Shown here: one piece after another, positions 1 to 19,588 of the stretch
Layout: each line of letters starts with the position of its first letter
Position numbering within the stretch: position 1 is the first letter of the stretch
Translations under genes and position numbers: made by a program
Assembly (NCBI RefSeq): GCF_004359215.1
Contig: NW_027152029.1
Coordinates: forward strand, 1,157,950-1,177,537
Direction of reading: 5' to 3'
Source: Bremia lactucae
Taxonomy: Eukaryota; Oomycota; Peronosporomycetes; Peronosporales; Peronosporaceae
DNA: 19,588 bases
Notes under the pieces: generated by a model
What the model saw: the letters and a program-made list of their open reading frames with translations, nothing else
Told to the model about the DNA's origin: nothing
Databases searched by the model: none

Positions 1-844
1 CGATTCGCGTTAAGTTTTTGAAGCCAAGCTTCGCGTCCAATGTCTTTAACATTGCGAATGAACGCACTCCAAGCTTGCATAAGCGAGACTTTATCTCGCT
101 TATTATTGCCACTAAACCATCGATGCTTTAGAAAAGCATCGAGATAGAAATCTTCCTCAGCGCGAAAGTTCTTCGCGCTGGGATCAAGGCCATGTAGCTT
201 TGTCGCAATAAATAAAGGATATTTATTGTGTGGAGTAGTTTCTCCAGACAAGCTATTAATGAGCCTTTCTGGCAAAAGCCACGGCTTCTTTTCAGGGGCG
301 AGATTAGACATTTTACTGTCTTCACTCCCCTGAGTGGTACCCGCTGAAGTAGGGGTACCACGAGGACTTTTCTTACGATGGGTTACGCCACCGTCGTCCC
401 TTGCACAGAGACACGTGCAGGTGACCGTATGGGAGACCGTACGAAAGATCGTACGAGCGATGAGGGATCATCCTCATCGTCGGATCCAATTAGACTGTTC
501 ACACGTCTATCAGAATGAGCCCTCTCATTCGAAGGCTCATAGTCAGCCGCCTGACGGGTATCAGGCAACTGTTCCATCCTCCCCGAGTCGGCCACTTCGT
601 CCGACTCGCACTCGTAGTCGACCTCTAAAAAGGGGTTGTATTCACGTGGTGAATCACCACGTGCACTCGCAACACCAAGTGTTGTGCGAATGGAAAACAC
701 TACGGTAGACGGAACGTCTACCACAAGAGATAGCAATGCGTCACCCGCGGCTGCACGAACCGCAGCCGAAGGTTCAACACTATTATCACCCCGCATGAAT
801 TGTTCTTTCATGCGATGGAATTTTGAAATGATGGATCTGACCAA
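1..844 (-). CDS. Antisense ORF of element A, unknown product, one frameshift, 3' end outside window
   Basis: I do not recognise this protein. A frame opens at an ATG (844, reading left) and runs 153 codons to a stop at 385-383. It is hydrophilic and rich in Ser, Asp, Glu and Arg, with an acidic run (GSDDEDDPSS). A second minus frame overlaps it and stays open from about position 400 to the left edge. That frame reads like folded protein (for example KKPWLLPERLINSLSGET and FLKHRWFSGNN, then AWSAFIRNVKDIGREAWL). The two halves probably formed one product of more than 260 residues, separated by a single frameshift or a short unrecognised intron. It lies between the presumed pol and the 3' LTR, against the element's direction. 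Antisense ORFs in this position are known in some plant gypsy elements. The same start region (FHRMKEQFMRG) is present antisense in element B. It could be an effector-like capture or a regulator; this is unproven. Confidence 0.5.
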
Positions 845-886
845 TCAAAAACAGTTTAAAAATTAAGTGGTCATTTTGCGACCACT
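20..886. repeat. Dense array of perfect short hairpins in element A
   Basis: Consecutive inverted repeats read by eye, given as span and arm length: 20-32 (5), 38-54 (6), 79-103 (10), 120-142 (10), 158-180 (9), 206-228 (9), 323-336 (5), 334-361 (9), 438-455 (6), 458-479 (8), 515-540 (7), 549-566 (6), 584-608 (8), 643-663 (9), 670-684 (6), 704-722 (7), 748-768 (7), 792-814 (8) and 866-886 (7). Examples of arms: ATAAGCGAGA with TCTCGCTTAT, TCGATGCTTT with AAAGCATCGA, and CACGTGGTG with CACCACGTG. Loops are mostly 3-12 nt. They run across the antisense ORF and the 3' non-coding tail alike. Confidence 0.9.
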
Positions 887-918
887 CCATCTAATGACAT
901 TCAGAGTGATTGTCGTTT

Positions 919-931
919 AAGGGAGGGGTGA
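919..931 (+). other. Polypurine tract of element A
   Basis: The purine-rich AAGGGAGGGGTGA abuts the first base of the 3' LTR, where plus-strand synthesis is primed in LTR elements. The identical tract precedes the 3' LTR of element B (15369-15381). It fixes the + orientation. Confidence 0.8.
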
Positions 932-1381
932 TGTAACGGGGTGTATCGTCACATGAAATTAACACTTAAAGGTTTTTATTAATATATTATCTAAAAGGTA
1001 GATAATATTTGGAGGATATTACTTTATATAGTAATGTCCTGAATTCTTATCCATAAATAGGTATAGACCATTATGTCTATTTATTCCGCAGACTAATCAG
1101 CTGTAGAAGTCATCAAAGAGAGTTACAAGATAAGATAGATAAGAATTCATTTACATGTTTAGTATTAGTTTATAGTTAAGTCAGCATTTACAAAGATAGA
1201 TTAAGAGACACTTAACTATATTAATACAGTTTTCATTTTACCCTCTTAAGTTAACTTGTCTTAAGAGAAGTCTTCCTCTGCACGTACAGTGTACATCACC
1301 TAACGAGAGGCACCACTCACAACTGAAGCAGTGTGAAGTGGACTTGTACTGAAACAGTACAAGTCGTAGTGCCCCGTTACA
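932..1381 (+). repeat. 3' LTR of element A (450 bp)
   Basis: It starts TGTAACGGGG and ends CCCCGTTACA, a perfect 10-bp terminal inverted repeat with canonical TG...CA ends. It is nearly the same as the two LTRs of element B and a more distant relative of the LTR of element C. Internal perfect stems lie at 984-1008 (9 bp), 1013-1040 (10 bp with one T.G pair), 1243-1267 (8 bp) and 1341-1365 (10 bp, GACTTGTACT with AGTACAAGTC). Confidence 0.93.
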
Positions 1382-1653: not shown

Positions 1654-2669
1654 ATGACTTCCCAAGGCAACAGCAAGGGGCTGGACGCGCTAGGGCAGGA
1701 GGTGCTCTGGAGCTCCAGTGGACAGCAGGTGATGATGCAGTGGGAAAAGCGTTACATGGAGACTTGCGTGGAGGCATTAGCCATTCAGCCGACTGACCGC
1801 GTGCTGGAAATCGGTTTCGGCTTGGCTTATTCGGGCTCTTGCATTCAAAGATTCCGACCCCGAAGCCACACAATAATTGAGTGCGATCGAGAGACGCTGG
1901 AGCGCACCCGAAAATTTGCTGCAAAATACAACGGAGTCGAAGTCATGGCTGGTACTTGGCAATGTATTCTGCCGACGCTTGACAAATTTGACTGCGTCTT
2001 CTTTGACGATTACCCGCTGCCGGAGTTGCAACAGAAGAAAACATCTGCCAACGTAACAGCAGTCCCTAGGCAGCAGTAAGTTCAATTTTTTTATAAAAAG
2101 CAAGTAGCAATACTGAGTGGTTTACTGCTTCTCTTAGGTCACGGTGGCACGACTTTTTGGATGTTGCGCTGAAGCACTGTCAAGATGGAGCTAGAATTTC
2201 AGGATATCTAGCTCGGAGTCTGGATTTAGAACGTCCTGGCTGTAGCGTCAAAGTTTCAAGGGTGCAAGTTGACGTCCCAGAGCATTGCAATTACTTCCCA
2301 TACAAGACTGCATTGGTGCCAGTGATCACGGTGATGGATCCATTAGCTGCAGCCAGGTTGCCCATTGCCGAAACCGGTTCATTTCATTCACTGCCGCATT
2401 TTTTCATGCAATTTGAACGTGCCTGTCAATATTTAAGCAGTTCTGATCGCGCAAAATTCTCACAGTGGAGAGAACGATTCTGTGGAATTCGAAAATCTCT
2501 ACTGGAACATAAAGTCGATGCGCACTTGCACAAAGACACAAATGTTAAGGAAGAATGCGACGCTATAGATGATGACGAAAAATCAAGCTATTATAGTAGT
2601 GAAGCGATACGGCGCGAATTTTTGCGTACACTCAGGAGCAAGGCAAAATCATCCATAACAAGTGCATGA
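1654..2669 (+). CDS. GAMT-like SAM-dependent methyltransferase, two exons
   Basis: Predicted protein of 317 aa from exons 1654-2075 and 2138-2669. The 62-bp intron has GTAAGT and TTAG ends, and the split codon (phase 2) joins as CAG. The first part has the layout of guanidinoacetate N-methyltransferase and yeast Rmt2-type enzymes: MQWEKRYM (28-35), SAM-binding motif I VLEIGFG (50-56), the acidic post-I strand TIIECD (73-78), and FDCVFFDDY (112-120). Exon 2 supplies the family's C-terminal block, VPEHCNYFPY (about 187-196) followed by TALVPV. The tail from about residue 230 is charged, with an acidic patch, and is not part of the fold. These enzymes methylate guanidino groups of small molecules or of arginine in protein; which applies here cannot be told. 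Neither exon alone makes a complete domain. The bases before the ATG (TTTTTCTAG) resemble a splice acceptor, so a 5'-UTR or upstream coding intron is possible. Element A ends 272 bp upstream. Confidence 0.82.
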
Positions 2670-4361: not shown

Positions 4362-6155
4362 ATGACGAGGATACACCTGGCACTGGCCTTTGCATTTGCA
4401 TTAGCCATCTGTGCACCCATTCGCGCGCAGTCCTATGAAGTCAACGGAAGTGAATCGTCCGTACCAGCATTCCCGGATGGGACTCGCTTTACATCAGATG
4501 ACGTTGCGATGAAGCATGATACAACACAATCCGTTACCAGGTCGGCAGTTGGTGAGGAACGCGATGGTGAAAGCGAAGCAGGCCACGCGTTCGATAGCTG
4601 TTCTTCAGACTGTGATGACAGTGATTCGTCTTCTTCTTTGGTTATCGGCGACAGGCTTCACGCAATAAGCACTATCAAGTCCGAGTACAGAAATTGGGTA
4701 GGAACTCATCTTGGCTCTGCGTCAGATACAGCGTGTTATCGCGAGACACACATAGCGAAGACGTGTCCGCTGGGGTATGACTATAAATTGGGAACATGCT
4801 GGGCACAGTGCCCATATTCCTACCCTGTTGAGTGCGGAATGGAGTGCATACGGCAAAATGACGACTGTGCGCTTGAAATTATTACTAAAATTAGCTCTGT
4901 GGGTCAAGCGGTATTCTCTCTTGCACCGTATAATGTGTATGGAAAATTTGAAGTGATGTCCAAGGCTATGAAGATTGCTCTCAAGTGTACAAAAGAGATG
5001 ATGGGATTAGTGAAAGCACTGTCTAAATTCATTCGTAATATTCAAGTGATTGACCCACAAACTACTCAAAGCAAGCTGCTAGTGCTGCTATATCAGACGG
5101 ACAATGTGGTCTTTGACATTCCGATCACTATCATGACTTGCACTGGAGTTTCATTTAGCGACAGCTTAAAGTACAAAGATAGGCTCGTAAATACGATTGA
5201 GCTTATCCTTCGAGATATTCTTGCTAATACAGCCACTATTGCTTCCAGCTGGACCGCATTTAAGGGCTTTATGAAAAACGTTACGCTCGGTGATACAATC
5301 GACTCACTGAACTCGTCCGAAATTACGTCTTTGCAGTCGGCATTAGAATCTGAGTCAAATTGTGGGTATGACATGAAAAGACTGTTGGACCGAGCGTGGG
5401 TTACCGTGGCAGAAATGCGTCGAAACGACCCAAGTATATCCGAAGACGACATCCGAATCGCTATTGGCAAGTCAAACCTAGTGCTTTATGATATTCCGGC
5501 TGCGACGAACAATTGCATGCCAGAGTTGATCGCCGAGTCAAACTTGGTAAAGGCATATGCCGCAAGAGATACGCTGCGCAAAGGGTTCAGTAGTATTGTG
5601 AATGACTTAATTAAGTCAGGAACGAGTAGCAACGGTACTTTATTAGCGGCAAATGAGTACGCATACGTGATTGCAAATAAGGCGGCATCATTTTACGGCG
5701 TTTGGGACAGGACGAACATCGGTGGTGCAATCTCTGAGTTTTTTCAAACGATTTGTGGACCTACAGAATATGTTGGCGAAATTGACGATGGCACGGCCGA
5801 AGAAGCATTGGGATTAAAGACTGTTCAAGATGCATTCAAGAGCAGTTCTGGTCACTGGTCAAAGAATGGCGACGGCTCGGTAGTGATCCATTTTAAAAGT
5901 GTTGATGTGAAGGATGTGGCCGTGAATATTAATTCCAATGGGAACCAGGTTGATCAAGTGTACGTTTTGGCGGGCCAGAACGTAACATGGAAATCAAATG
6001 TGACGTTTTTGGGGGGCAAGACGCTGTATTTGGATCGCTGGCGACCAGGATTTCTAGGCATTCCTAATAGTAATGGAGGTTCGCTGCTTTTGTGGGTGCC
6101 TCGGTCAACTAAAGGTGGCCATCTGCAGCTCACCGTGAAAATCAATGGCAATTAA
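4362..6155 (+). CDS. Secreted cysteine-containing protein of unknown function, 597 aa
   Basis: I do not recognise a named family. The protein is intronless. It begins with a clear signal peptide: basic MTR, hydrophobic core LALAFAFALAI, and likely cleavage after IRAQ (about residue 23). Residues 24-95 are low in hydrophobics and rich in Ser, Asp and Glu, including a run of DCDDSDSSSS. A compact block at 125-169 holds seven cysteines (CYRE, TCPLGYDY, GTCWAQCPY, VECGMECI, DDC). Residues 170-490 look helical. The last ~110 residues alternate in beta fashion and are rich in Gly, Asn and Val (for example DGSVVIHFKSVDVKDVAV), as in lectin or carbohydrate-binding folds. Several N-glycosylation sequons (NGS, NSS, NVT, NGT) fit secretion. 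No RxLR motif precedes an acidic region, although GEER occurs at about residue 65. The start is supported by the signal peptide and the promoter elements. A role outside the cell or at the cell wall is inference. Confidence 0.8.
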   Translation: MTRIHLALAFAFALAICAPIRAQSYEVNGSESSVPAFPDGTRFTSDDVAMKHDTTQSVTRSAVGEERDGESEAGHAFDSCSSDCDDSDSSSSLVIGDRLHAISTIKSEYRNWVGTHLGSASDTACYRETHIAKTCPLGYDYKLGTCWAQCPYSYPVECGMECIRQNDDCALEIITKISSVGQAVFSLAPYNVYGKFEVMSKAMKIALKCTKEMMGLVKALSKFIRNIQVIDPQTTQSKLLVLLYQTDNVVFDIPITIMTCTGVSFSDSLKYKDRLVNTIELILRDILANTATIASSWTAFKGFMKNVTLGDTIDSLNSSEITSLQSALESESNCGYDMKRLLDRAWVTVAEMRRNDPSISEDDIRIAIGKSNLVLYDIPAATNNCMPELIAESNLVKAYAARDTLRKGFSSIVNDLIKSGTSSNGTLLAANEYAYVIANKAASFYGVWDRTNIGGAISEFFQTICGPTEYVGEIDDGTAEEALGLKTVQDAFKSSSGHWSKNGDGSVVIHFKSVDVKDVAVNINSNGNQVDQVYVLAGQNVTWKSNVTFLGGKTLYLDRWRPGFLGIPNSNGGSLLLWVPRSTKGGHLQLTVKINGN

Positions 6156-7320: not shown

Positions 7321-8183
7321 TTACTTTTTCTCCTTCTTGTCCGCCAAACGCTTGGCCTGCTTGCCAAAGATACGCTTGTCGGCACGTGCCACACGCAATT
7401 GCGTAAAGACGCTATTTTCCTTCATTTCAGGCGTAATAAAGGCCGTAGTTGATTTGACGCTCAAGCTTTTGATTGGGAGGATCGGGCCCGCATGCTGAAC
7501 GGCATTCTTCACGTCCTCAGAAGCAGCATCGCCATTCTTGGGCTTGTTGCTCTTACGCGGGAATACCACAAGCTTGGCCTTGTAAGCCTTAAGGCGGTGC
7601 ACGTTTGCCTGGAGTGACTCGACAGACTTGTTGGTGCGACGGAAGTCCACAGCAATGCCAATGCTTAAAGCCTGTTTGCGGTTGATGCCGGCCTCCTTAA
7701 GCTCCTCTAGGGTAAATCCTTTGCCTGCGCGAACCTTAGAGCCATACTTAATCGTGGGGCAGTGTACAGCAGGACGCAGAAGACCAGCGGCTGGACGCGG
7801 GGCAACGGCAGCAGCCTTAGCTTTACGTCTCAGACGGCGGGTCTTTTTCTTAGAAGCCTGTAAAATTGAGCATGGTGATTAGTAAAGTTCAGCAGAGAGA
7901 TACTTCAGCCACCCAGAGAGTTATTCGGTTTGCATGACACGATTCGCTCAATCAATACGACCAGCTAGGTGTTATTGTAGCTTTAATGTCATTTTTGGAG
8001 ATGATCTGTATGCATTTCCCTCATTACAGATTTTAACACACAAGTGTGCTTGTGGAATAATCTCCTGGATGGCTGGGCGCATGATAATAAATTAATTCTT
8101 GCCTGGTCGAACCAGGTTTTAATTCGCGATTCCCAGTACTTGTGGAAATGGCCGTTGGGAATGACGTTGTTGTGCTTCACCAT
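7321..8183 (-). CDS. RPL13: 60S ribosomal protein eL13 (L13e), two exons, GC-AG intron
   Basis: Structural protein of the large cytosolic ribosomal subunit, 205 aa (human eL13 is 211). Exon 1 (8183-8103) encodes the hallmark N-terminus [15 protein letters not shown] and ends ...KTWFDQ. Exon 2 (7857-7321) continues [15 protein letters not shown], then [28 protein letters not shown] and [10 protein letters not shown], all conserved eL13 blocks, and ends in a Lys-rich tail. Both exons are phase 0 and join where the family runs from TWFNQ into its basic stretch. The intron (8102-7858, 245 bp) begins GCAAGA after CAG and ends TTACAG, so it is a GC-AG intron; no in-phase GT donor gives the family sequence. 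The gene is divergent from the SAC3-type gene. Confidence 0.95.
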
Positions 8184-8534: not shown

Positions 8535-11500
8535 ATGTTCAGCTCCAGCAGTGCGTCCTGAATTTCATTTGCTTGCCGCCTCCCCCATATTGAGGCTGTT
8601 CTGCGCTTGTGCTCGTTATTATCATGCTAAAACTTTTTTTGCTATTGTTTATAGATCGCGGTGGCAGCTTCGATGGCTTCGGTCTACAAGGCAGCAATCC
8701 CTTTGAGCAGCACCAAGGTACGAAAGTACAGGTGGTTTAAGATACATTGTGTGTGCTGTTGCGGTCAGTACAGGTGGACGAGCAGCTCTTTTAGGGGGCA
8801 AATAGCGCTCTCATCTTTGTTGCGGCCAGTTTTTTGTTAGTCTGCGGGTATTGATCAGTTCCTTCGCGTGTTCAGGATCGATGTCTGCCAACCCGTTTCA
8901 AGCCAGAACAAAAGCTTCTGCCTTAAAGACAACTTTTGGCCAAAGCTCTGGCTATGGAAGCCAGCCGCCATTACCTCCAGGCGGTGTGATGGGTTATCCC
9001 GATAATGGATTTGGCAAGCATCCACCTCTAGCAAAAGCTTCTCCACCATTAGCAAGGGATTATAGTGGATCTTTAAAAAGTGGTTATCCATTCGGCCAAA
9101 CAATGGACAGCAGAAGAAAAATGTCAAACAGCTCAAGTACGCCGTTTGGATCGGCAGCGTCTGAGCAGAACTCCGTCTCAGTCTCGCCGACGTTAGCAAA
9201 TGCGCATGTTATGTTTGGGAGCTCGACGAATGGGGACAGGAAGGCCACAAGCCAAGACTCTGGATTTGCTCATAATAACTCGGCGTCAATTTCGGAAAGT
9301 ATCACTGCGTCTGAACATGGCATTATTGTAAAAACGACACATTTTGGGGCGGATAAGCGCCGAAAGAATTCTTTCCCGATTAAGTCCGGCCGAAATGGCT
9401 TAGGAATCCCAATAACAATGTCATCGTCTGTGACATCGTTTGGAGGCAATGGATTGGATGCTCAACTACGAAACCAGCAAAATGCTTCTCAAGTAATGTC
9501 TGCTGTTCATGCAACAAAATCGAACGGATCTGTAGATAGCGGTGGAGGGAAATTGAAAGGATTTAACACTTGTACAACTTTTGGCAGTGCACCCAATGGT
9601 ATAGGCGTTAAGACTTTTTCGACCTCTGAAAATTCTTCTTCTCATGAACCTGTCATTCACACAGCGTTTGGTGATAAACGACGGCATAGTGCGTTGCAAA
9701 TCGGCTCAGAGACTTCAGTTATAAAGACAAACAAGACAGTATCGCCGATGGAGTTGCGAGCAAGTGGTTTCGAAAAACTACCGCCCGGAAGAGGTAAACA
9801 AACGCAAGGATTTAAAAAGGAAAGAAGAGAAATTATTGCCCAAAATTTATCTCGGCCCAAAAAAGATCTTCAAATTCCATTTGGCCCAAATGCTGATAAG
9901 GAAGTGAATATCCAGAAAAAAAGCTCAAAAAAGGATACGGCTCGAAAGACACGGCACAAACGAGAAAAGGAAAGAGTAGCAAGCATCATCGGCGATGAAC
10001 CTTCGAATCTTCCTGTGCCGTCTTCTGTCTCGTTTCGAGATGATAGCAGCAAAGCTGAACTATCAGCTGCTTTTAATTTAAATGGTCGTTGTGCTGATAT
10101 GTGCAGTCAGGCAGAACGGGACCTGCATATACGGGTGGACGAATTGAGCGTTTTCGAAAAGGACTTTCCGAATCGGCCAGGATCAGAGCGCGACATGATC
10201 ATAAAGCGTTTTCAGCGTAGTTCGGCTGACCACAAATTAGATATACCAGAGGAAATTAGACCTCCTGGTGTTCTTCGACGAACCCAACTCTATATTGAGC
10301 AGGCAATCATGGATTTGGATCAATGTGGCTTGGATTTTCGTTTCCAGACGCCTCGAGTACCAGAGCCGATTGAACTGTACAATTTTTGCTGGGACCGATT
10401 CCGAATGATTCGCAAGGATTTCGTTTTGCAGAACTATCGTGGTGCCGGGGGTCGAGTTCACCCTATCGCTCTGGACGTGCATGAGCGTATCGCTCGCTAC
10501 CATGTGCTCAGCGAGCATGAACTTATCGATACTCCAAGTTTTGTAGCCCAACAAAACATGGAACAACTTGGACAAACACTTAAATCTCTTAACGAGCTGT
10601 ATGATGAAAGTCACAAGGTTGGAAACCCTGCTTATTGTAGTCCATTTGAGGCTGAATTTCGCGCGTACTTTATTCTTTGTACACTAGACAATGGTCGTGG
10701 TATGGATGTGCTGAAGTACGTAAAAAATCTTTCGCGTCGTATTATGGAAAGCGTGCAGATAAAATTCGCCATGCGAGTCTTTATTGCGCGCCATACAAGC
10801 GATTATTTCCAGTTTTTTTCGCTGCTTCGCCAAGCGACATACTTACAGTCATGCTTGCTGTTCCGGTACATCCCAAACGTTCGGTCATCGGCTTTGCTTC
10901 GCATGAATCGAAGTTATCGTAGCCAGATCTATCCACTTGAGGACTTGGTAGAGCAGTTGTGTTTTGACGATATTGAGCATGCGTATTTCGTCTGTCAGGA
11001 GCATCATTTGAGAATAGCCGGTAGACCTGGCGCCGGCGACGATAGTTTAGTTCACGTTAAGTTTGGAGGAGAGTTTGAAACTGGTATGGACGTGCTTGTT
11101 AGATAATTTGAACTGCATCAATTGAATGGATTGACGGGTTGTGTTGTGGCCTTAATTTAGATGCCCAGCTTCGACGAAACAACACGCCATTGCAAACTCG
11201 CAGCTCAAAGATTTATGTCGGGATGAAGCAGGGGTGAGTTTCGAATTGTTAGAGCTTATAGAAGGCCCTTCATGACGTTGTATCTTCTCTCTTGGTATGA
11301 ATAGTAATTATTTAAGGCAAGATATCTGCCGCGGGGTCACGGAATACGCTCGAGATGATTACCCGGCGCTGAGCAAAAGTATACAAGATTTTGAATGTGA
11401 AGAACGGGCACAACTGTATCCGGAGAAGCCTCCGTATGAAGATAGTTACTCTCGTTTTGTCGACTTTAATTTAGATGCTTTGTTGACGACTACAGTGAGC

Positions 11501-13876
11501 GCACAGGCAAATGGAATCTTAAACCAGCACCAATTGATAGAGGTAAACCAGAAACGACATGAGCTCGATGCAATAGCGCGGAAAAAGATAGAGCTTGAAC
11601 GGAAAAAAGTGGCAATGCTGGAACGTATGCGGGAGCTGGAAAAAGCGAAAGAGGAGAAAGATAACCGCGAGCAAGCCAAACAGGTTTTAGCTGAACAGTC
11701 GGCTCATTTCGAAGCGCAGAAGAAGAGGGACTTTATTGCACAATCTTTAGCTAATGAGGAAGTCGCGGAAGCGACGCAATTGCCTAAGCAAACGCAGCAG
11801 CGGGAAGAAAAAGAGGGACATCAAGAGAAAGAGGAATTTGCTCGCGAAGCAGAACAGCATCAAAAGACAGAGGAAGTTGCTCACGTAGCTAAGCATCAAC
11901 AAATTGAAACTTTGAGATTGAGGGCTGTTGAAGAAGAGCGACGTCAAGAGGATGAAAAGCGGCACAAAGAGCTTCGGATAAAGGCAGCACAAGAGCTGGA
12001 GCAACAGCGTCAGCAAGAATTAGCAGAGATGCAAGCGCGCCAAGCTCGCGAAGCTGCACTTGAAGCGCAACGGCTAGCGCAGCTGGCCAAGGAGCAAGCT
12101 GAACAAAAGAGGTTGCACCGTATTAAAAAGCAACGGCTTGGCATTTTGAGGTTTAAGCTGCACTTGTGGAAAAATTATGTTCGTAACTCGCGCGAAGGTC
12201 CTGGACCAGTCTCGCTAGCGTCGAAGCTTCGACTTCAGCAGCCTCATCAAAAGGCAAAAGACAGTATGCAATGGCTATTTCGAGGAAGCACACTAATTGG
12301 TACAAAGCGGTCAAAGCTGGAACCGAGAGTTGTGAGAAACCTTTCATTTTCCATTGCAAATTTGATGTCGCTTTGGCATGCTGAAGATATGTTGGAGTTG
12401 GTTGGCCCTTCTCTTCGTCAACTAAACCCCGACGCTCCATTAGTTGCATGGAAGTTGGTAATTGCTGATCTTCTGGATGAAGCGTCATCGTCATTTGGTT
12501 TGTGGTGTGGTGTTAGAGCGGGAGCACAGGGAGTCTCTACACCCGAGCGCGACTGTTTACGTACATATCATACAAGCACAGGTACAGCACAAGGTGTTGC
12601 TCTTTGCAGCAGGTATCTTGATTCGACGTTTGCTCAGCGAAATACGCGTGAGAAGCAAGTCGAGAAGCTCGCTGCAACATCGGCTATCTTACTTCCAGTG
12701 GACCTCGGCTTACTGCAGGAAGCTAATACATGCATCAAGTGGGAGAGGCAAGTGGTGGATATTTTATCGCTGCTGGACTCAGGATGTCGTGCGACTTTAC
12801 TTGCTGTTGGGTTTGCTTCGGCAGAACTCAAATTGTCGCAAGCATTGGTGTTGAGCACTCTTGAAAGGTGCATTGAACGAGTGCAACGCCAATGTGCAGC
12901 GCAAGTAGCTTATGTCGATGTCGAGCTTGTTAATGCAGGAATTACCCTCCCCGTCACGTTTGGTCAAGTGCTAAAGAAAATAGCAGAATTGTCTCCTCCT
13001 GTTCGCCATTGCAAGAGTGTTGAATTAAAGGAGCTCCTAGAGAGTAATGTTAGAGCGATGATGGATTGCTTTGAGTCGTCCATAGGTATGCAGAGAAGCA
13101 TTTGTACAACATTCGCAAAGTTACGTGACGAAATTTTGTCGTCTGGAGTTTTGGATCTCGTTTACCTACCGCCAGAGCTTCAATTTGCAATCGTGGATTC
13201 TCCGCGTGATTGGAACTCCAAGGAGCGGAAACACGAGATTCAAAATGTAATGACGTCGCTTGAAGTCACCTGTATTGTTTTGGAAACGTCTTCGATAAAT
13301 CGAGGTCTGACATGCGACGTTTACTTTAAAAAATTGGAGAATTTTATCGACCGATTATTCCTGTCGCATGCAGCAAGAGTTGCAGTGTCGACGTATGAGT
13401 TAAAAAGACGCATTTATGGCGCGCTTCTTCCAATTCATAAGAAACTGACTCAAGACGGTAAAACGGAATTGGTGACACCTGAGGATGCAGACGTGCTTTT
13501 GCCATGGCGAAGTATTTACAAGGAGATCTACGAGACATTCTTCGAGACGTTGGAAGACATTATGATTTACTATCCGACGAATTGGCGGATTCCCTTGAGC
13601 TTTGTAAATGATGTGCACCCGCCAGCAGCAAAGCAGCCGCAAACTTCTGTTAGAAGCATAAAGCTTGACCGCCATATCGTGATGCAACCAGTGCAAGTAT
13701 CTGCACAGAGCGTACGAAAAAGCTTTGGGCCGCTAAGTTTGATCGACGAAACGATACAGCAGTATAAAGCCGTTGGCGAGATTAAGCGCCTTCGAGTCGA
13801 GATTGCGAAGGAGCGTGCTGCGACGTCGCAATTTCAACACAATCTCCGCCAGGCTGTAAATCGATGGAACGATTAA
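8535..13876 (+). CDS. SAC3: SAC3/GANP (MCM3AP-like) mRNA-export scaffold, five exons, 1639 aa
   Basis: Family role: scaffold of the nuclear-pore TREX-2 complex, linking transcription to mRNA export. Exons: 8535-8550, 8655-8717, 8876-11083, 11161-11233 and 11317-13876. All junctions keep phase and the total is 4920 nt. Introns (104, 158, 77 and 83 bp) have GT-AG ends. Residues 1-365 carry about 11 FG dipeptides (GFGL, TFGQ, PFGS, MFGS and others) and NPF motifs, like the nucleoporin-type N-terminus of GANP. Residues 370-400 are Lys/Arg rich, a likely nuclear signal. The SAC3 domain spans about 425-760: NGRCADMCS, ERD, RPPGVLRRT, then a helical block ending HLRIAGRPGAGDD. The KIYVGMKQ stretch is built by the small fourth exon. 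Residues 865-1065 form a long Glu/Gln/Arg/Lys coiled coil. The remaining ~570 residues resemble the MCM3AP C-terminal region (WLFRGSTLIGTKRS, APLVAWKLVIADLL). The tiny first exon encodes MFSSS and is the weakest part; without it translation could begin at 8881. Confidence 0.9.
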
Positions 13877-14338: not shown

Positions 14339-14384
14339 CGCTTGCCACTTCTCCATAAAACACGACAGCGCGTGACCTCTTTGG

Positions 14385-14837
14385 TGTAACGGGGTGTATC
14401 GTTACATGAAATTAACACTTAAAGGTTGTTAATTAATATGTTATCTAAAAGGTAGATAATATTTGGAGGATATTACTTTATATAGTAATATCCTGAATTC
14501 TTATCCATAAATAGGTATAGGCCATTATATCTATTTATTCCGCAGACTAATCAGCTGTAGAAGTAATCAAAGAGAGTTACAAGATAAGATAGAGATAAGA
14601 ATTCATTTACATGTTTAGTATAAGGTTATAGTTAAGTCAGCATTTACAAAGATAGATTAAGAGACACTTAACTATATTAATACAGTTTTCATTTTACCCT
14701 CTTAAGTTAACTTGTCTTAAGAGAAGTCTTCCTCTGCACGTACAGTGTACGTCACCTAACGAAAGGCACCACTCACAACTGAAGCAGTGTGAAGTGGACT
14801 TGTACTGAAACAGTACAAGTCGTAGTGCCCCGTTACA
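14385..14837 (+). repeat. 5' LTR of element B (453 bp)
   Basis: TGTAACGGGG to CCCCGTTACA ends. It is near-identical to 15382-15832, differing for example by an extra AG in GATAGAGATAAG. Confidence 0.95.
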
Positions 14838-14839
14838 CC

Positions 14840-14847
14840 TGGTAGCA
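14840..14847 (+). other. Primer-binding site of element B
   Basis: TGGTAGCA begins two bases after the LTR, as a tRNA primer site should (TGG complements the CCA tail). TGGTAGCA would pair with an acceptor end of ...UGCUACCA, as in many initiator-Met tRNAs. Element C has TGGTGTTA here (18936-18943), so tRNA identity is uncertain. Confidence 0.5.
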
Positions 14848-14873
14848 CTTTGTAGTCCGTCCAAGGACCACAT

Positions 14874-15199
14874 TTCCCACATTTAACATGGACATGTTAG
14901 ATGGTAGTGGGAATACGCATCACGTTTCCCCTGAAAGCTACTCCTTTCTAAGTGATATAGAAAGGAGTGCGGTTGAACGAATGAGTTCATCCGTAGGAAA
15001 CGATGCAATCCTGGCATTACTGTCCAACTTAGACAGAGATGCCCTCCATTCAACCGTCGCCAAGTTCATACAACATGAACTTGACGAGATGAAGGAAAAA
15101 GTAGCCTTGCTGAATCAGCAAGGCTCTCAACAGGCGGAACTGTTGAGATTACAACAGGTACAGACCCCTGTACCTGGGATGACGCAAACGCGTCGTCCC
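14874..15199. repeat. Back-to-back hairpins through the gag coding region of element B
   Basis: Perfect stems: 14874-14913 (7 bp, enclosing the ATG), 14940-14968 (11 bp, ACTCCTTTCTA with TAGAAAGGAGT), 14974-14989 (5), 15020-15036 (5, inside a second 5-bp stem 15013-15043), 15061-15083 (9, CAAGTTCAT with ATGAACTTG), 15103-15125 (10), 15125-15148 (9), 15155-15176 (9) and 15176-15199 (10 with one G.T pair). From 15103 on they abut almost without spacer. Confidence 0.92.
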
Positions 15200-15207
15200 G
15201 AAACTCT
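14888..15207 (+). CDS. Gag-like N-terminal fragment of element B, truncated by assembly gap
   Basis: About 106 codons from the ATG at 14888 to the gap. The protein begins MDMLDGSGNTHHVSPESYSF, is acidic and helical, and has a coiled-coil-like segment (ELDEMKEKVALLNQQGSQQ), which fits a gag N-terminus. It follows the primer-binding site by about 40 bp. The first ~24 residues match element C (MGISDDSGNTHHVSRDSNSF). No zinc knuckle or protease is visible because the sequence stops at the gap. The frame after the gap is not a real continuation. Confidence 0.65.
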
Positions 15208-15236
15208 NNNNNNNNNNNNNNNNNNNNNNNNNNNNN
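15208..15236. other. Assembly gap (29 N)
   Basis: A run of N joins the gag start to the 3' tail of element B. A gap inside a repeat with several near-identical copies suggests unresolved or collapsed sequence, so its true length is unknown. Confidence 0.97.
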
Positions 15237-15368
15237 TCACCCCGCATGAATTGTTCCTTCATGCGATGGAATTTAAAATGATGGATCTGACCAATCAAAA
15301 ACATTTTAAAAATTAAGTGGTCATTTAGCGACCACTCCATCTAATGACATTCAGAGTGATTGTCGTTT

Positions 15369-15381
15369 AAGGGAGGGGTGA
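15369..15381 (+). other. Polypurine tract of element B
   Basis: Same AAGGGAGGGGTGA tract as in element A, directly before the 3' LTR. The stem just upstream (AGTGGTC with GACCACT) is kept while its loop differs from element A. Confidence 0.78.
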
Positions 15382-15832
15382 TGTAACGGGGTGTATCGTT
15401 ACATGAAATTAACACTTAAAGGTTGTTAATTAATATATTATCTAAAAGGTAGATAATATTTGGAGGATATTACTTTATATAGTAATATCCTGAATTCTTA
15501 TCCATAAATAGGTATAGGCCATTATATCTATTTATTCCGCAGACTAATCAGCTGTAGAAGTAATCAAAGAGAGTTACAAGATAAGATAGATAAGAATTCA
15601 TTTACATGTTTAGTATTAGGTTATAGTTAAGTCAGCATTTACAAAGATAGATTAAGAGACACTTAACTATAATAATACAGTTTTCATTTTACCCTCTTAA
15701 GTTAACTTGTCTTAAGGGAAGTCTTCCTCTGCACGTACAGTGTACGTCACCTAACGAAAGACACCACTCACAACTGAAGCAGTGTGAAGTGGACTTGTAC
15801 TGAAACAGTACAAGTCGTAGTGCCCCGTTACA
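15382..15832 (+). repeat. 3' LTR of element B (451 bp)
   Basis: TGTAACGGGG to CCCCGTTACA ends, preceded by the purine tract and followed by the MULE sequence that resumes at 15833. Confidence 0.95.
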
Positions 15833-15915
15833 TCTGGGATAATTAGCCAAAATGCCCGGTGACAGGGGCCAGCAGTCAATAAGTAGTCCTTTATCCAGGT
15901 AATAGCACTCGTAAA

Positions 15916-18466: not shown

Positions 18467-18933
18467 TGTAAAGGGGTGTATTGTTACAGGAAATTAACAC
18501 TTAAAGGTTCTTAATTTTTTTTAATTATTATTTTTTTAATTAATATATTATCTTAAAGGTAGAGAATATTTGGGGGATATTACTTTACATGGTAATACTC
18601 TAAAAGCTTATCCATTGGTAGATATATACCATTAAATATACTTTTTTCGCGGTCCAGTCAGCGCTGAATGCGCGCAAAGAAAAAGACAGATAAGACTTTT
18701 AGTCATATTTTGTATTAGTTTATAATTAAGTTAGTATTAAATAGATAGACAAGAAGAACTAAATTATATATTAATACAGTTTTTTAATTAACCCTCTTAT
18801 AAGCAAGTGTTTTAAAGAGTGTCTTCCTCTGCACGTACTAGAGTACGCGAAGTGACATGAGGCACCACTCGCACTGAGGCAGTGCGAAGTGGACTTGTAC
18901 TGAAGCAGTACAAGTCGGCAGTGCCCCGTTTTG
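18467..18933 (+). repeat. 5' LTR of element C (about 467 bp)
   Basis: Begins TGTAAAGGGG and aligns along its length to the A and B LTRs (shared TTAACACTTAAAGGTT, CTTCCTCTGCACGTAC, GTACAAGTC). Stems are kept with changed bases or loops, for example CGCACTG with CAGTGCG at 18870-18886. Confidence 0.88.
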
Positions 18934-18983
18934 CCTGGTGTTACTTTGTAGTCCGTCCAAAGACCACAGTTCCATCATCTAAC

Positions 18984-19127
18984 ATGGGCATCTCAGATGA
19001 TAGTGGGAATACGCATCATGTTTCCCGTGATAGCAACTCCTTTCTAAATGACATAGGAATCTGCGTTGTGGTAGAATCAAGCAGATCTGTGTATTGTCAC
19101 AGAGGACGAATACGTAACCGATATTAG
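18984..19127 (+). pseudogene. Gag N-terminal remnant of element C
   Basis: ATG at 18984, 47 codons to a stop at 19125-19127. The first ~24 residues match the gag start of element B; after FLNDIG the similarity is lost. The start codon sits in the loop of a 7-bp stem (18974-18980 with 18995-19001). Confidence 0.7.
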
Positions 19128-19159
19128 GTCAGCGGTAATTTTTGCAGAGATTGAACGGG

Positions 19160-19335
19160 TTTTCATTTGAAGTTAAAGCCCCTACTGGACATAAATCTAC
19201 TAAATTACCAGAAAATTCTGAATTAAAATTTTTTGGATAATAGAAATTAATCTCGGTATTACCACCCCTACCGGTTGTACCTAGGTCATCAACTCCACAG
19301 ATTTCATTAGCAAATCTTACACATCGAGTACACTC
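19160..19335 (-). pseudogene. nad11: Mitochondrial nad11 fragment (NUMT) inside element C
   Basis: Reading the minus strand, about 57 codons match the iron-sulfur region of NADH dehydrogenase subunit 11 (the 75-kDa complex I subunit): [20 protein letters not shown], then TGRGGNTEI, then [17 protein letters not shown], with the cysteine and Gly-rich motifs intact. The part is AT-rich with A/T-ending codons, unlike the neighbouring sequence, as expected for mitochondrial DNA; oomycetes encode nad11 in the mitochondrion. Both edges pass into unrelated sequence, so no full gene is present. Boundaries are approximate. A nuclear-encoded subunit is much less likely, given the truncation and position between gag and reverse transcriptase. 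Confidence 0.85.
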
Positions 19336-19375
19336 ATCGATGGACGAAAGTAGTGGCCACTGCCTCGTGAACAAG

Positions 19376-19588
19376 TCTTGCGATCGATAAATGCTTTATC
19401 GATCGATTAAAAGCGGGCCATGTGTGGGAGTCAACCTCCCCACATAGCTCTCTGACCTTCTGTGTGCGAAAGGCCACAGGAGGGTGGCGGATAGTGCACG
19501 CATTCAATAAACTGAATGCTGCAACGGTACCGGCTCAAACGCCGATACCTAGAAAAGACGTAATCATAGATGGTATGTCTAAGAGTAC
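19376..19588 (+). pseudogene. Ty3/gypsy reverse transcriptase, N-terminal part (runs off window)
   Basis: The plus frame reads DRLKAGHVWESTSPHSSLTF, CVRKATGGWRIVHAFNKLNA and ATVPAQTPIPRKDVIIDGMS. This is the first conserved part of gypsy-type reverse transcriptase (fingers region with K.GGWR, the N-K-L-N motif and P-x-P-R). The catalytic YxDD box lies beyond the edge. A stop lies just upstream in frame and the start of pol is absent, so this copy is not functional. It establishes that the LTR family is Ty3/gypsy-like. Confidence 0.85.
19381..19549. repeat. Hairpins within the reverse transcriptase region of element C
   Basis: 19381-19405 has 11-bp arms (CGATCGATAAA with TTTATCGATCG, loop TGC). 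19423-19444 has a GTGTGGGAG-type arm with one bulge. 19500-19519 has 7-bp arms (GCATTCA with TGAATGC). 19526-19549 has 9-bp arms with one mismatch (GGTACCGGC with GCCGATACC). The stems overlie a conserved protein-coding region. Confidence 0.88.

What the first reader, a model, noticed from the sequence alone, without database searches (positions are those of the whole stretch)
20..886. Retrotransposon tiled with perfect short hairpins (element A)
Nine perfect stems with arms of 8-10 bp and about ten more of 5-7 bp lie in under 900 bp, spaced about every 45 bp. With equal base frequencies and loops of 3-12 nt, a rough expectation for stems of 8 bp or more is about 0.1-0.2 in this length. The neighbouring genes, read the same way, do not show it. 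The pattern ignores reading frame and strand, so it is a property of the nucleic acid. Possible roles: packaging or protection of the RNA genome, small-RNA triggering or evasion, or a by-product of quasi-palindrome correction by strand-switching during reverse transcription. I know of no described retroelement family with such tiling.
Basis: partly seen in the sequence, partly recalled or inferred. Interest (0 to 1): 0.9.

Follow-up and report, generated by a model that had tools for sequence, protein, structure and literature searches.

The report
Hairpin-tiled retrotransposon of an oomycete
A jumping gene with many copies in what is probably a downy mildew genome is written as a dense run of perfect short hairpins laid over its protein-coding sequence, and these hairpins appear to be kept intact while the element is active, likely because its RNA or DNA copy has to fold up for packaging or protection.

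Summary
Window 20-886 has 10 perfect stems of 8 bp or more, against 0.12 in 1000 dinucleotide shuffles (maximum 2). It is the tail of a Ty3/Gypsy chromodomain element just upstream of its 3' LTR. The tiling recurs in the other readable parts of the family: gag-position ORF, pre-RT region, integrase, chromodomain region, LTR. Host genes and one unrelated gypsy gag-protease are at chance. Folding excess averages about 40% over 3.6 kb; the highest whole-genome value in one paper on vertebrate RNA viruses is 23.4% (PMC7642675).

The tail also holds an antisense gene conserved in downy mildews; its stems exceed synonymous shuffles 12-fold. With stems defined on relatives, changes fixed in lineage A avoid them (2 of 180 columns against 40 of 583), as do variants shared among copies (0 of 180 against 19 of 583); private decay does not. 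So the stems are constrained during transposition rather than in integrated DNA.

The cause is inferred. I favour selection for folding of the element's nucleic acid. The lack of G-U excess and weak covariation leave arm-copying during reverse transcription a real rival.

The parts
1..931 (+). 3' end of the internal region of retrotransposon element A (element on the + strand, cut by the window start), tiled with perfect hairpins: 14 stems of 7 bp or more in 1-932
   Evidence: in copy L024 the same tail follows integrase and chromodomain frames
79..814 (.). ten perfect hairpins with arms of 8-10 bp: 79-103, 120-142, 158-180, 206-228, 334-361, 458-479, 584-608, 643-663, 704-722, 792-814
   Evidence: conservation in relatives
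3..844 (-). antisense gene between pol and the 3' LTR. In this copy it is split over two frames (386-844 and 3-467); copies with a longer open frame exist (400 aa in L007; P0001, 559 aa)
   Evidence: homologues in Hyaloperonospora and Peronospora; Pfam finds nothing above its cut-offs
919..930 (+). purine-rich tract next to the LTR, a likely polypurine tract (assigned by eye)
   Evidence: read directly
932..1381 (+). 3' LTR of element A (TGTAACGGGG...CCCCGTTACA), with hairpins (3 stems of 7 bp or more against 0.36 in shuffles)
14385..15832 (+). element B: a short copy of the same family, LTR 14385-14837, internal 14838-15381 with a masked stretch at 15208-15236, LTR 15382-15832; the LTRs differ at 5 of 449 aligned bases. 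Its start (ORF 14888-15205, called gag by position only) is hairpin-dense
   Evidence: at least 40 scored copies identical over 370 bp
18469..19588 (+). element C: related LTR (18469 to about 18935; about 72% identical to LTR A by BLAST) and a broken internal start, less dense (2 stems of 7 bp or more in 653 bp against 0.34)

Best explanation
The finding is the tail of an abundant Ty3/Gypsy chromodomain retrotransposon whose readable sequence is tiled with perfect short hairpins laid over coding sequence on both strands, and these are likely held by selection so that the element's RNA, or the DNA copied from it, folds into a compact, shielded form during transposition. Shown here: the tiling, its presence in the gag-position ORF, pre-RT region, integrase, chromodomain region, antisense gene and LTR, its encoding through codon choice, and the avoidance of stems by fixed and shared changes while private changes hit stems as often as other sites. 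Inferred: that selection rather than a copying mechanism keeps the stems, that the folded molecule is the RNA genome or its cDNA, and that packaging or shielding is the benefit. It would work like the genome-scale ordered RNA structure of some RNA viruses, in a stronger form.
For: Stem excess over dinucleotide shuffles in the readable parts of the family and none in host genes or in one unrelated gypsy gag-protease. Excess over synonymous shuffles: antisense ORF 18 against 1.5 (max 5 of 200), integrase 7 against 0.62 (max 3), gag-position ORF 4 against 0.52 (max 3). Folding excess about 40% in 350-nt windows over 3.6 kb; host genes -0.1 to 1.1%. Stems lie on conserved residues as often as elsewhere (0.464 against 0.422 identity over 89 homologues). 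With stems defined on non-A relatives, A-derived fixed changes 2 of 180 stem columns against 40 of 583 (p=0.0013); variants shared among 20 A copies 0 of 180 against 19 of 583; private variants 6 of 180 against 21 of 583. Third codon positions of the antisense frame: fixed differences at 6 of 92 stem and 33 of 162 other columns. Pair-keeping double changes in LTR stems above control in two of six comparisons (5 against 1.2, P 0.002; 4 against 1.4, P 0.03). Single-step change with intermediates in stems 79-103 and 704-722.
Against: No wobble signature: G.T is no commoner than A.C on the sense strand (9 and 8; 12 and 23; 12 and 26 in sense-coding pieces, p=0.03; 9 and 9 shared), whereas selection on sense RNA alone should spare G-U. 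Covariation in the tail is hardly above control (12 against 10.6), and four of six LTR comparisons show no excess. Diversity among nine non-A relatives is only slightly lower in stems (0.112 against 0.124; 0.088 of mask shifts as low), and with union stems over all relatives columns with shared variants differ little (42 of 354 in stems, 50 of 323 outside, 9 of 73 in loops). One copy has a snap-back insertion. Both strands fold alike. No experiment shows that the RNA folds this way in the cell.
Confidence: 0.5

Rival explanations
1. A copying by-product: during reverse transcription or second-strand synthesis the polymerase switches template inside hairpins and rewrites one arm from the other, so that chance stems are perfected and kept perfect without any use. 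The correction would act only in the transposition cycle.
For: Arms are almost purely Watson-Crick with no G-U preference. Fixed and shared changes avoid stems while private ones do not, which correction in the cycle also predicts. Copy L076 carries an insertion at stem 158-180 that is the exact 12-nt reverse complement of the sequence just before it, a snap-back product. Repeat conversion by template switching is proposed for coding palindromes of Nematomorpha mitochondria (PMC6649704, passages).
Against: Template switching between arms also inverts spacers (PMC8604942, abstract), yet of 140 equal-length loop comparisons 129 are forward-like, 5 inversion-like and 6 ties. Stem changes between lineages include single-step intermediates. 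Stems sit on conserved residues through codon choice, which block copying would often damage. One other gypsy gag-protease in the same genome lacks the tiling.
Confidence: 0.3
2. Selection acts on single-stranded DNA, the minus-strand cDNA, rather than on RNA: hairpins would protect the cDNA or assist strand transfer, so that G-U tolerance on the sense strand is not expected.
For: No sense-strand wobble excess, and in sense-coding pieces A.C exceeds G.T (26 against 12, p=0.03), which reads as G.T on the minus strand. Both strands fold equally well.
Against: The A.C excess is one of several comparisons and is absent in antisense-coding pieces (9 A.C, 10 G.T) and reversed in LTRs (0 and 3). No direct evidence on cDNA.
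Confidence: 0.12
3. Chance, low complexity, or many inserted mini-palindromes: the hairpins would be composition effects or small inserted elements.
For: Hairpin 438-455 of A is absent from all 10 relatives compared, which lack 12 nt there, so at least one stem came with an insertion.
Against: Dinucleotide and synonymous shuffles do not reproduce the excess. The stems listed have unrelated sequences, and stem codons are no richer in alignment gaps than others (occupancy 0.90 against 0.89).
Confidence: 0.03

Closest known systems
[quoted passage not shown]
   Same: Many consecutive stem-loops throughout coding sequence, raised folding energy over dinucleotide-preserving shuffles, less diversity at paired sites.
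   Different: Folding excess about 40% here against 15% for SARS-CoV-2, 7-9% for HCV and 23.4% for the highest coronavirus genome (single windows of SARS-CoV-2 exceed 50%); perfect Watson-Crick stems; stem positions are conserved among relatives, whereas GORS pairings are described as poorly conserved; and it is a retrotransposon.
Coding palindromes in Nematomorpha mitochondrial genes (PMC6649704, passages seen)
   Same: Perfect inverted repeats inside protein genes, with arms that encode conserved residues.
   Different: Those have arms of at least 15 bp and up to 142 bp in organelle genes; here arms are 7-12 bp, denser, in a mobile element, and on both coding strands.
Antisense additional ORFs between pol and 3' LTR (Grande, RIRE2, Retand; PMC7264820, passages seen)
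   Same: Same place and orientation as the antisense gene here, conserved, function unknown.
   Different: 'Hairpin' does not occur in that paper's text; the protein here has homologues in downy mildews. A relationship to the plant proteins was not tested.
Template-switch mutagenesis between inverted-repeat arms (PMC8604942, abstract and outline seen)
   Same: Could perfect the arms of inverted repeats; one snap-back insertion is present in L076.
   Different: It also inverts spacers, which is hardly seen here, and here the low variation in stems is confined to changes made while the element is active.

Membership tests
Ty3/Gypsy chromodomain LTR retrotransposon | LTRs with TG...CA ends flanking an internal region | tested here: met
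   element B 14385-15832 has both LTRs; element A shows its 3' LTR
Ty3/Gypsy chromodomain LTR retrotransposon | integrase with zinc-binding and core domains, and a chromodomain | tested here: met
   Pfam Integrase_H2C2, rve and Chromo in L024, SH3_Tf2-1 in L007
Ty3/Gypsy chromodomain LTR retrotransposon | reverse transcriptase placing it in a gypsy clade | tested here: inconclusive
   the core of copies is largely withheld; a related-family piece (L066, L067) reaches the start of RT by tblastn to L059, whose frame holds RVT_1, but Pfam gives nothing for the L066 piece itself; no tree was made
Ty3/Gypsy chromodomain LTR retrotransposon | primer binding site and polypurine tract | not tested
   a purine tract at 919-930 was seen by eye; the primer site was not matched to a tRNA
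Genome-scale ordered RNA structure | folding energy well above dinucleotide-preserving shuffles across coding sequence | tested here: met
   in the readable parts only
Genome-scale ordered RNA structure | less diversity at paired sites | tested here: met
   fixed and shared changes; weak or absent in other comparisons
Genome-scale ordered RNA structure | pairings that shift between relatives (described for HCV and sarbecoviruses) | tested here: not met
   65 of the 110 stem pairs of A recur in at least 3 of 9 relatives
Genome-scale ordered RNA structure | folded RNA in the cell | not testable with these tools
   needs chemical probing
Template-switch (quasi-palindrome) product | inversion of loops along with arm homogenisation | tested here: not met
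   129 forward-like, 5 inversion-like, 6 ties
Antisense additional ORF of LTR retrotransposons | conserved ORF antisense to gag-pol, between pol and 3' LTR | tested here: met

The most novel reading that the evidence does not exclude
A retrotransposon lineage whose whole genome is under selection to be an array of perfect hairpins: a folding code written over proteins on both strands, more structured than any whole-genome RNA virus value in the paper I read, and used to pack or shield its genome.
Probability: 0.4. Interest if true: 0.87.

Novelty: new variant of a known kind. Interest (0 to 1): 0.74.

Why it matters
If selection holds the hairpins, a retrotransposon has carried genome-wide folding further than the RNA viruses in the paper I read, over coding sequence on both strands, and its many copies let constraint be separated from decay. 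If arm-copying holds them, the element is a visible record of strand switching during reverse transcription acting over most of its length. Either way it makes testable why some genomes fold along their whole length, in a group where LTR elements can fill most of the genome (74% of contig sequence masked in Bremia lactucae, PMC6570648, passages seen).

Tried and rejected
Wobble test for selection on sense RNA alone: no G-U excess. Covariation over the tail: hardly above control. My first divergence figures (stem 10.9%, loop 28.1%, outside 19.3%) and the third-position figures (12.7% in stems, 29.9% outside) are biased, because stems were defined on the copy being compared. I replaced them by stems defined on the relatives; among those relatives alone the difference is weak, and with union stems over all relatives shared variants differ little. 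The first copy comparison was redone with union stems for the same reason. Even spacing rejected. Inserted mini-palindromes rejected as the general explanation. Relatives in viral contigs: none found with the integrase piece. Antisense protein: Pfam gives nothing above its cut-offs; predicted structure has mean pLDDT 57.5 and no PDB match at E <= 0.001. One synonymous control (window 11298-13871) was read in a wrong frame and is not used; another (gag of L010) has 2 stems against 0.39 (max 3), slightly above its mean. Rows dropped: L001 (same place as the window) and L021-L027 (places already covered) from the copy comparison; L069 (near-identical to L068); L064 left out and used as outgroup. 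The 20 copies are the best hits of at least 40 scored among 2575 candidates. Loops of unequal length were left out of the inversion count.

Full report
WHAT THE REGION IS. The window lies in a 115.9-Mb genome of 220 contigs. The named homologues of the antisense protein in the list are from downy mildews (Hyaloperonospora, Peronospora), and a published Bremia lactucae assembly is 115 Mb and mostly LTR elements (PMC6570648, passages seen); that the host is Bremia is an inference. Window 1-931 is the end of an internal region, followed by a purine tract (919-930) and an LTR (932-1381). In copy L024 the same tail follows integrase and a chromodomain on the + strand, so the element is a Ty3/Gypsy chromodomain element and the long minus-strand frames in the finding belong to an antisense gene.

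THE OBSERVATION. In 20-886 there are 10 perfect stems of 8 bp or more against 0.12 in 1000 dinucleotide shuffles (max 2), and 13 of 5-7 bp against 5.9 (max 13). Stems of 7 bp or more, observed against shuffled: finding 14 against 0.53; LTR A 3 against 0.36; start of element B 4 against 0.22; integrase 7 against 0.37; chromodomain region 14 against 0.61; a C-family piece reaching the start of RT 7 against 0.42. The gypsy gag-protease in L024 3844-5373 has 1 against 0.76, two other gag pieces 1 against 0.28 and 2 against 0.42, and five host genes 0-2, at or near chance. Over 3,591 contiguous bases of L024 there are 41 such stems (11.4 per kb), covering 26% of the sequence, with spacing no more even than random placement. 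Five of six sampled loci (L059-L063) hold remnants related to this or other elements and lie between (1.9-3.8 stems per kb); the sixth, L058, has no such match and 0.5 per kb.

FOLDING. Mean excess of folding energy over dinucleotide shuffles in 350-nt windows: 38% in the finding, 40% over L024 5554-9144, 44% in the pre-RT piece, 64% in the one gag-position window, 33% in subfamily D; three host genes -0.1 to 1.1%, the other gypsy 5.7%. Passages of PMC7642675 give 15% for SARS-CoV-2 (with windows above 50%), 7-9% for HCV and 23.4% for the highest coronavirus genome. Both strands score alike.

CODING. The antisense gene looks real: 138 homologues at E <= 0.001, the named ones from other downy mildew genera at about 39-60% identity (120 listed), and fixed changes concentrate at third codon positions (39 of 77). 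Its hairpins are written in codon choice: 18 stems against 1.5 in 200 synonymous shuffles (max 5); integrase 7 against 0.62 (max 3); gag-position ORF 4 against 0.52 (max 3). Controls read in frame have 0-2 stems against 0.2-1.5. Stem codons are no less conserved in protein than others (0.464 against 0.422 over 89 homologues) and no richer in gaps; one 10-bp stem spans SREAGLPCLTW. In subfamily D the longest antisense open stretch is 77 (L068) or 91 (L069) of 254 codons, yet 16 of 40 scored hits have the same score as these copies, so the antisense protein may be dispensable for spread.

CONSTRAINT. I compared 20 copies of A with relatives 77-86% identical to A. All 11 relatives are tiled (5-10 stems of 7 bp or more in 644-778 bp, shuffles 0.2-0.5; A copies 12-13). 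With stems present in at least 3 of nine non-A relatives, changes fixed on the A branch fall in stems at 2 of 180 columns and outside at 40 of 583 (p=0.0013), with L064 as outgroup and 31 of 77 fixed differences not polarised. Third codon positions with fixed differences: 6 of 92 stem columns and 33 of 162 others. Variants shared among A copies: 0 of 180 and 19 of 583; private variants 6 of 180 and 21 of 583; with stems present in any one of the nine relatives, shared 3 of 293 and 16 of 470. With union stems over A copies: 0 of 22 shared variants in 285 of 933 columns (p=5.5e-4), private 13 of 285 and 23 of 648. So stems appear to be kept while the element moves and to decay like the rest once integrated, which argues against upkeep by host DNA replication or repair. 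Against this, diversity among the nine non-A relatives is only slightly lower in stems (0.112 against 0.124; 0.088 of mask shifts as low), and with union stems over all relatives columns with shared variants differ little (42 of 354 in stems, 50 of 323 outside, 9 of 73 in loops).

SELECTION OR COPYING. For selection: codon-choice encoding over conserved residues; single-step change with T.G and A.C intermediates in stems 79-103 and 704-722; double changes in LTR stems above control in two of six comparisons (5 against 1.2, 4 against 1.4; the other four 0-1 against 0.2-0.6); hardly any loop inversion (129 forward-like, 5 inversion-like, 6 ties). For copying: pairs are almost purely Watson-Crick with G.T no commoner than A.C, and L076 carries a snap-back insertion at 158-180. 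Double changes in the tail are hardly above control (12 against 10.6). I put selection for folding at about 0.5, copying at 0.3 and selection on the DNA strand at 0.12.

LITERATURE. Ten searches of an open-access library listed no hairpin-tiled retroelement; several lists were capped and I judged them by titles and the starts of abstracts. I saw passages of PMC6570648, PMC6649704, PMC7642675 and PMC7264820 and the abstract and outline of PMC8604942. The closest analogues are GORS in RNA viruses and the coding palindromes of Nematomorpha mitochondria; neither matches in host, scale and conservation of position together, so I rate this a new variant of a known kind.

Noticed in passing
L063 3103-3703 and 3989-4324: A homologue of the antisense protein (residues 269-383) lies in the same orientation as the integrase just upstream of it, unlike in element A. 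It could be another insertion.
   Followed up: no
window 14380-14384 and 15833-15837: Flanks of element B, TTTGG and TCTGG, may be a 5-bp target duplication with one change.
   Followed up: no
L076, aligned to window 158-180: An insertion in a hairpin is the exact 12-nt reverse complement of the bases just before it, as a snap-back copying event would leave.
   Followed up: partly
window 432-457: A-specific hairpin 438-455 lies where all 10 relatives compared lack 12 nt, in what looks like a 12-nt tandem repeat coding for S-P-x-R-like units of the antisense protein.
   Followed up: partly
window 1654-2077: Gene with weak matches, below cut-off, to RrnaAD and PCMT methyltransferase families, directly downstream of element A.
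   Followed up: no
window 4362-6152: Open frame of about 600 aa with a signal-peptide-like start (by eye) and no Pfam match.
   Followed up: no
window 7324-7878 and 8881-11103: Ribosomal protein L13e (minus strand) and a SAC3/GANP-family protein: ordinary host genes used as controls.
   Followed up: yes
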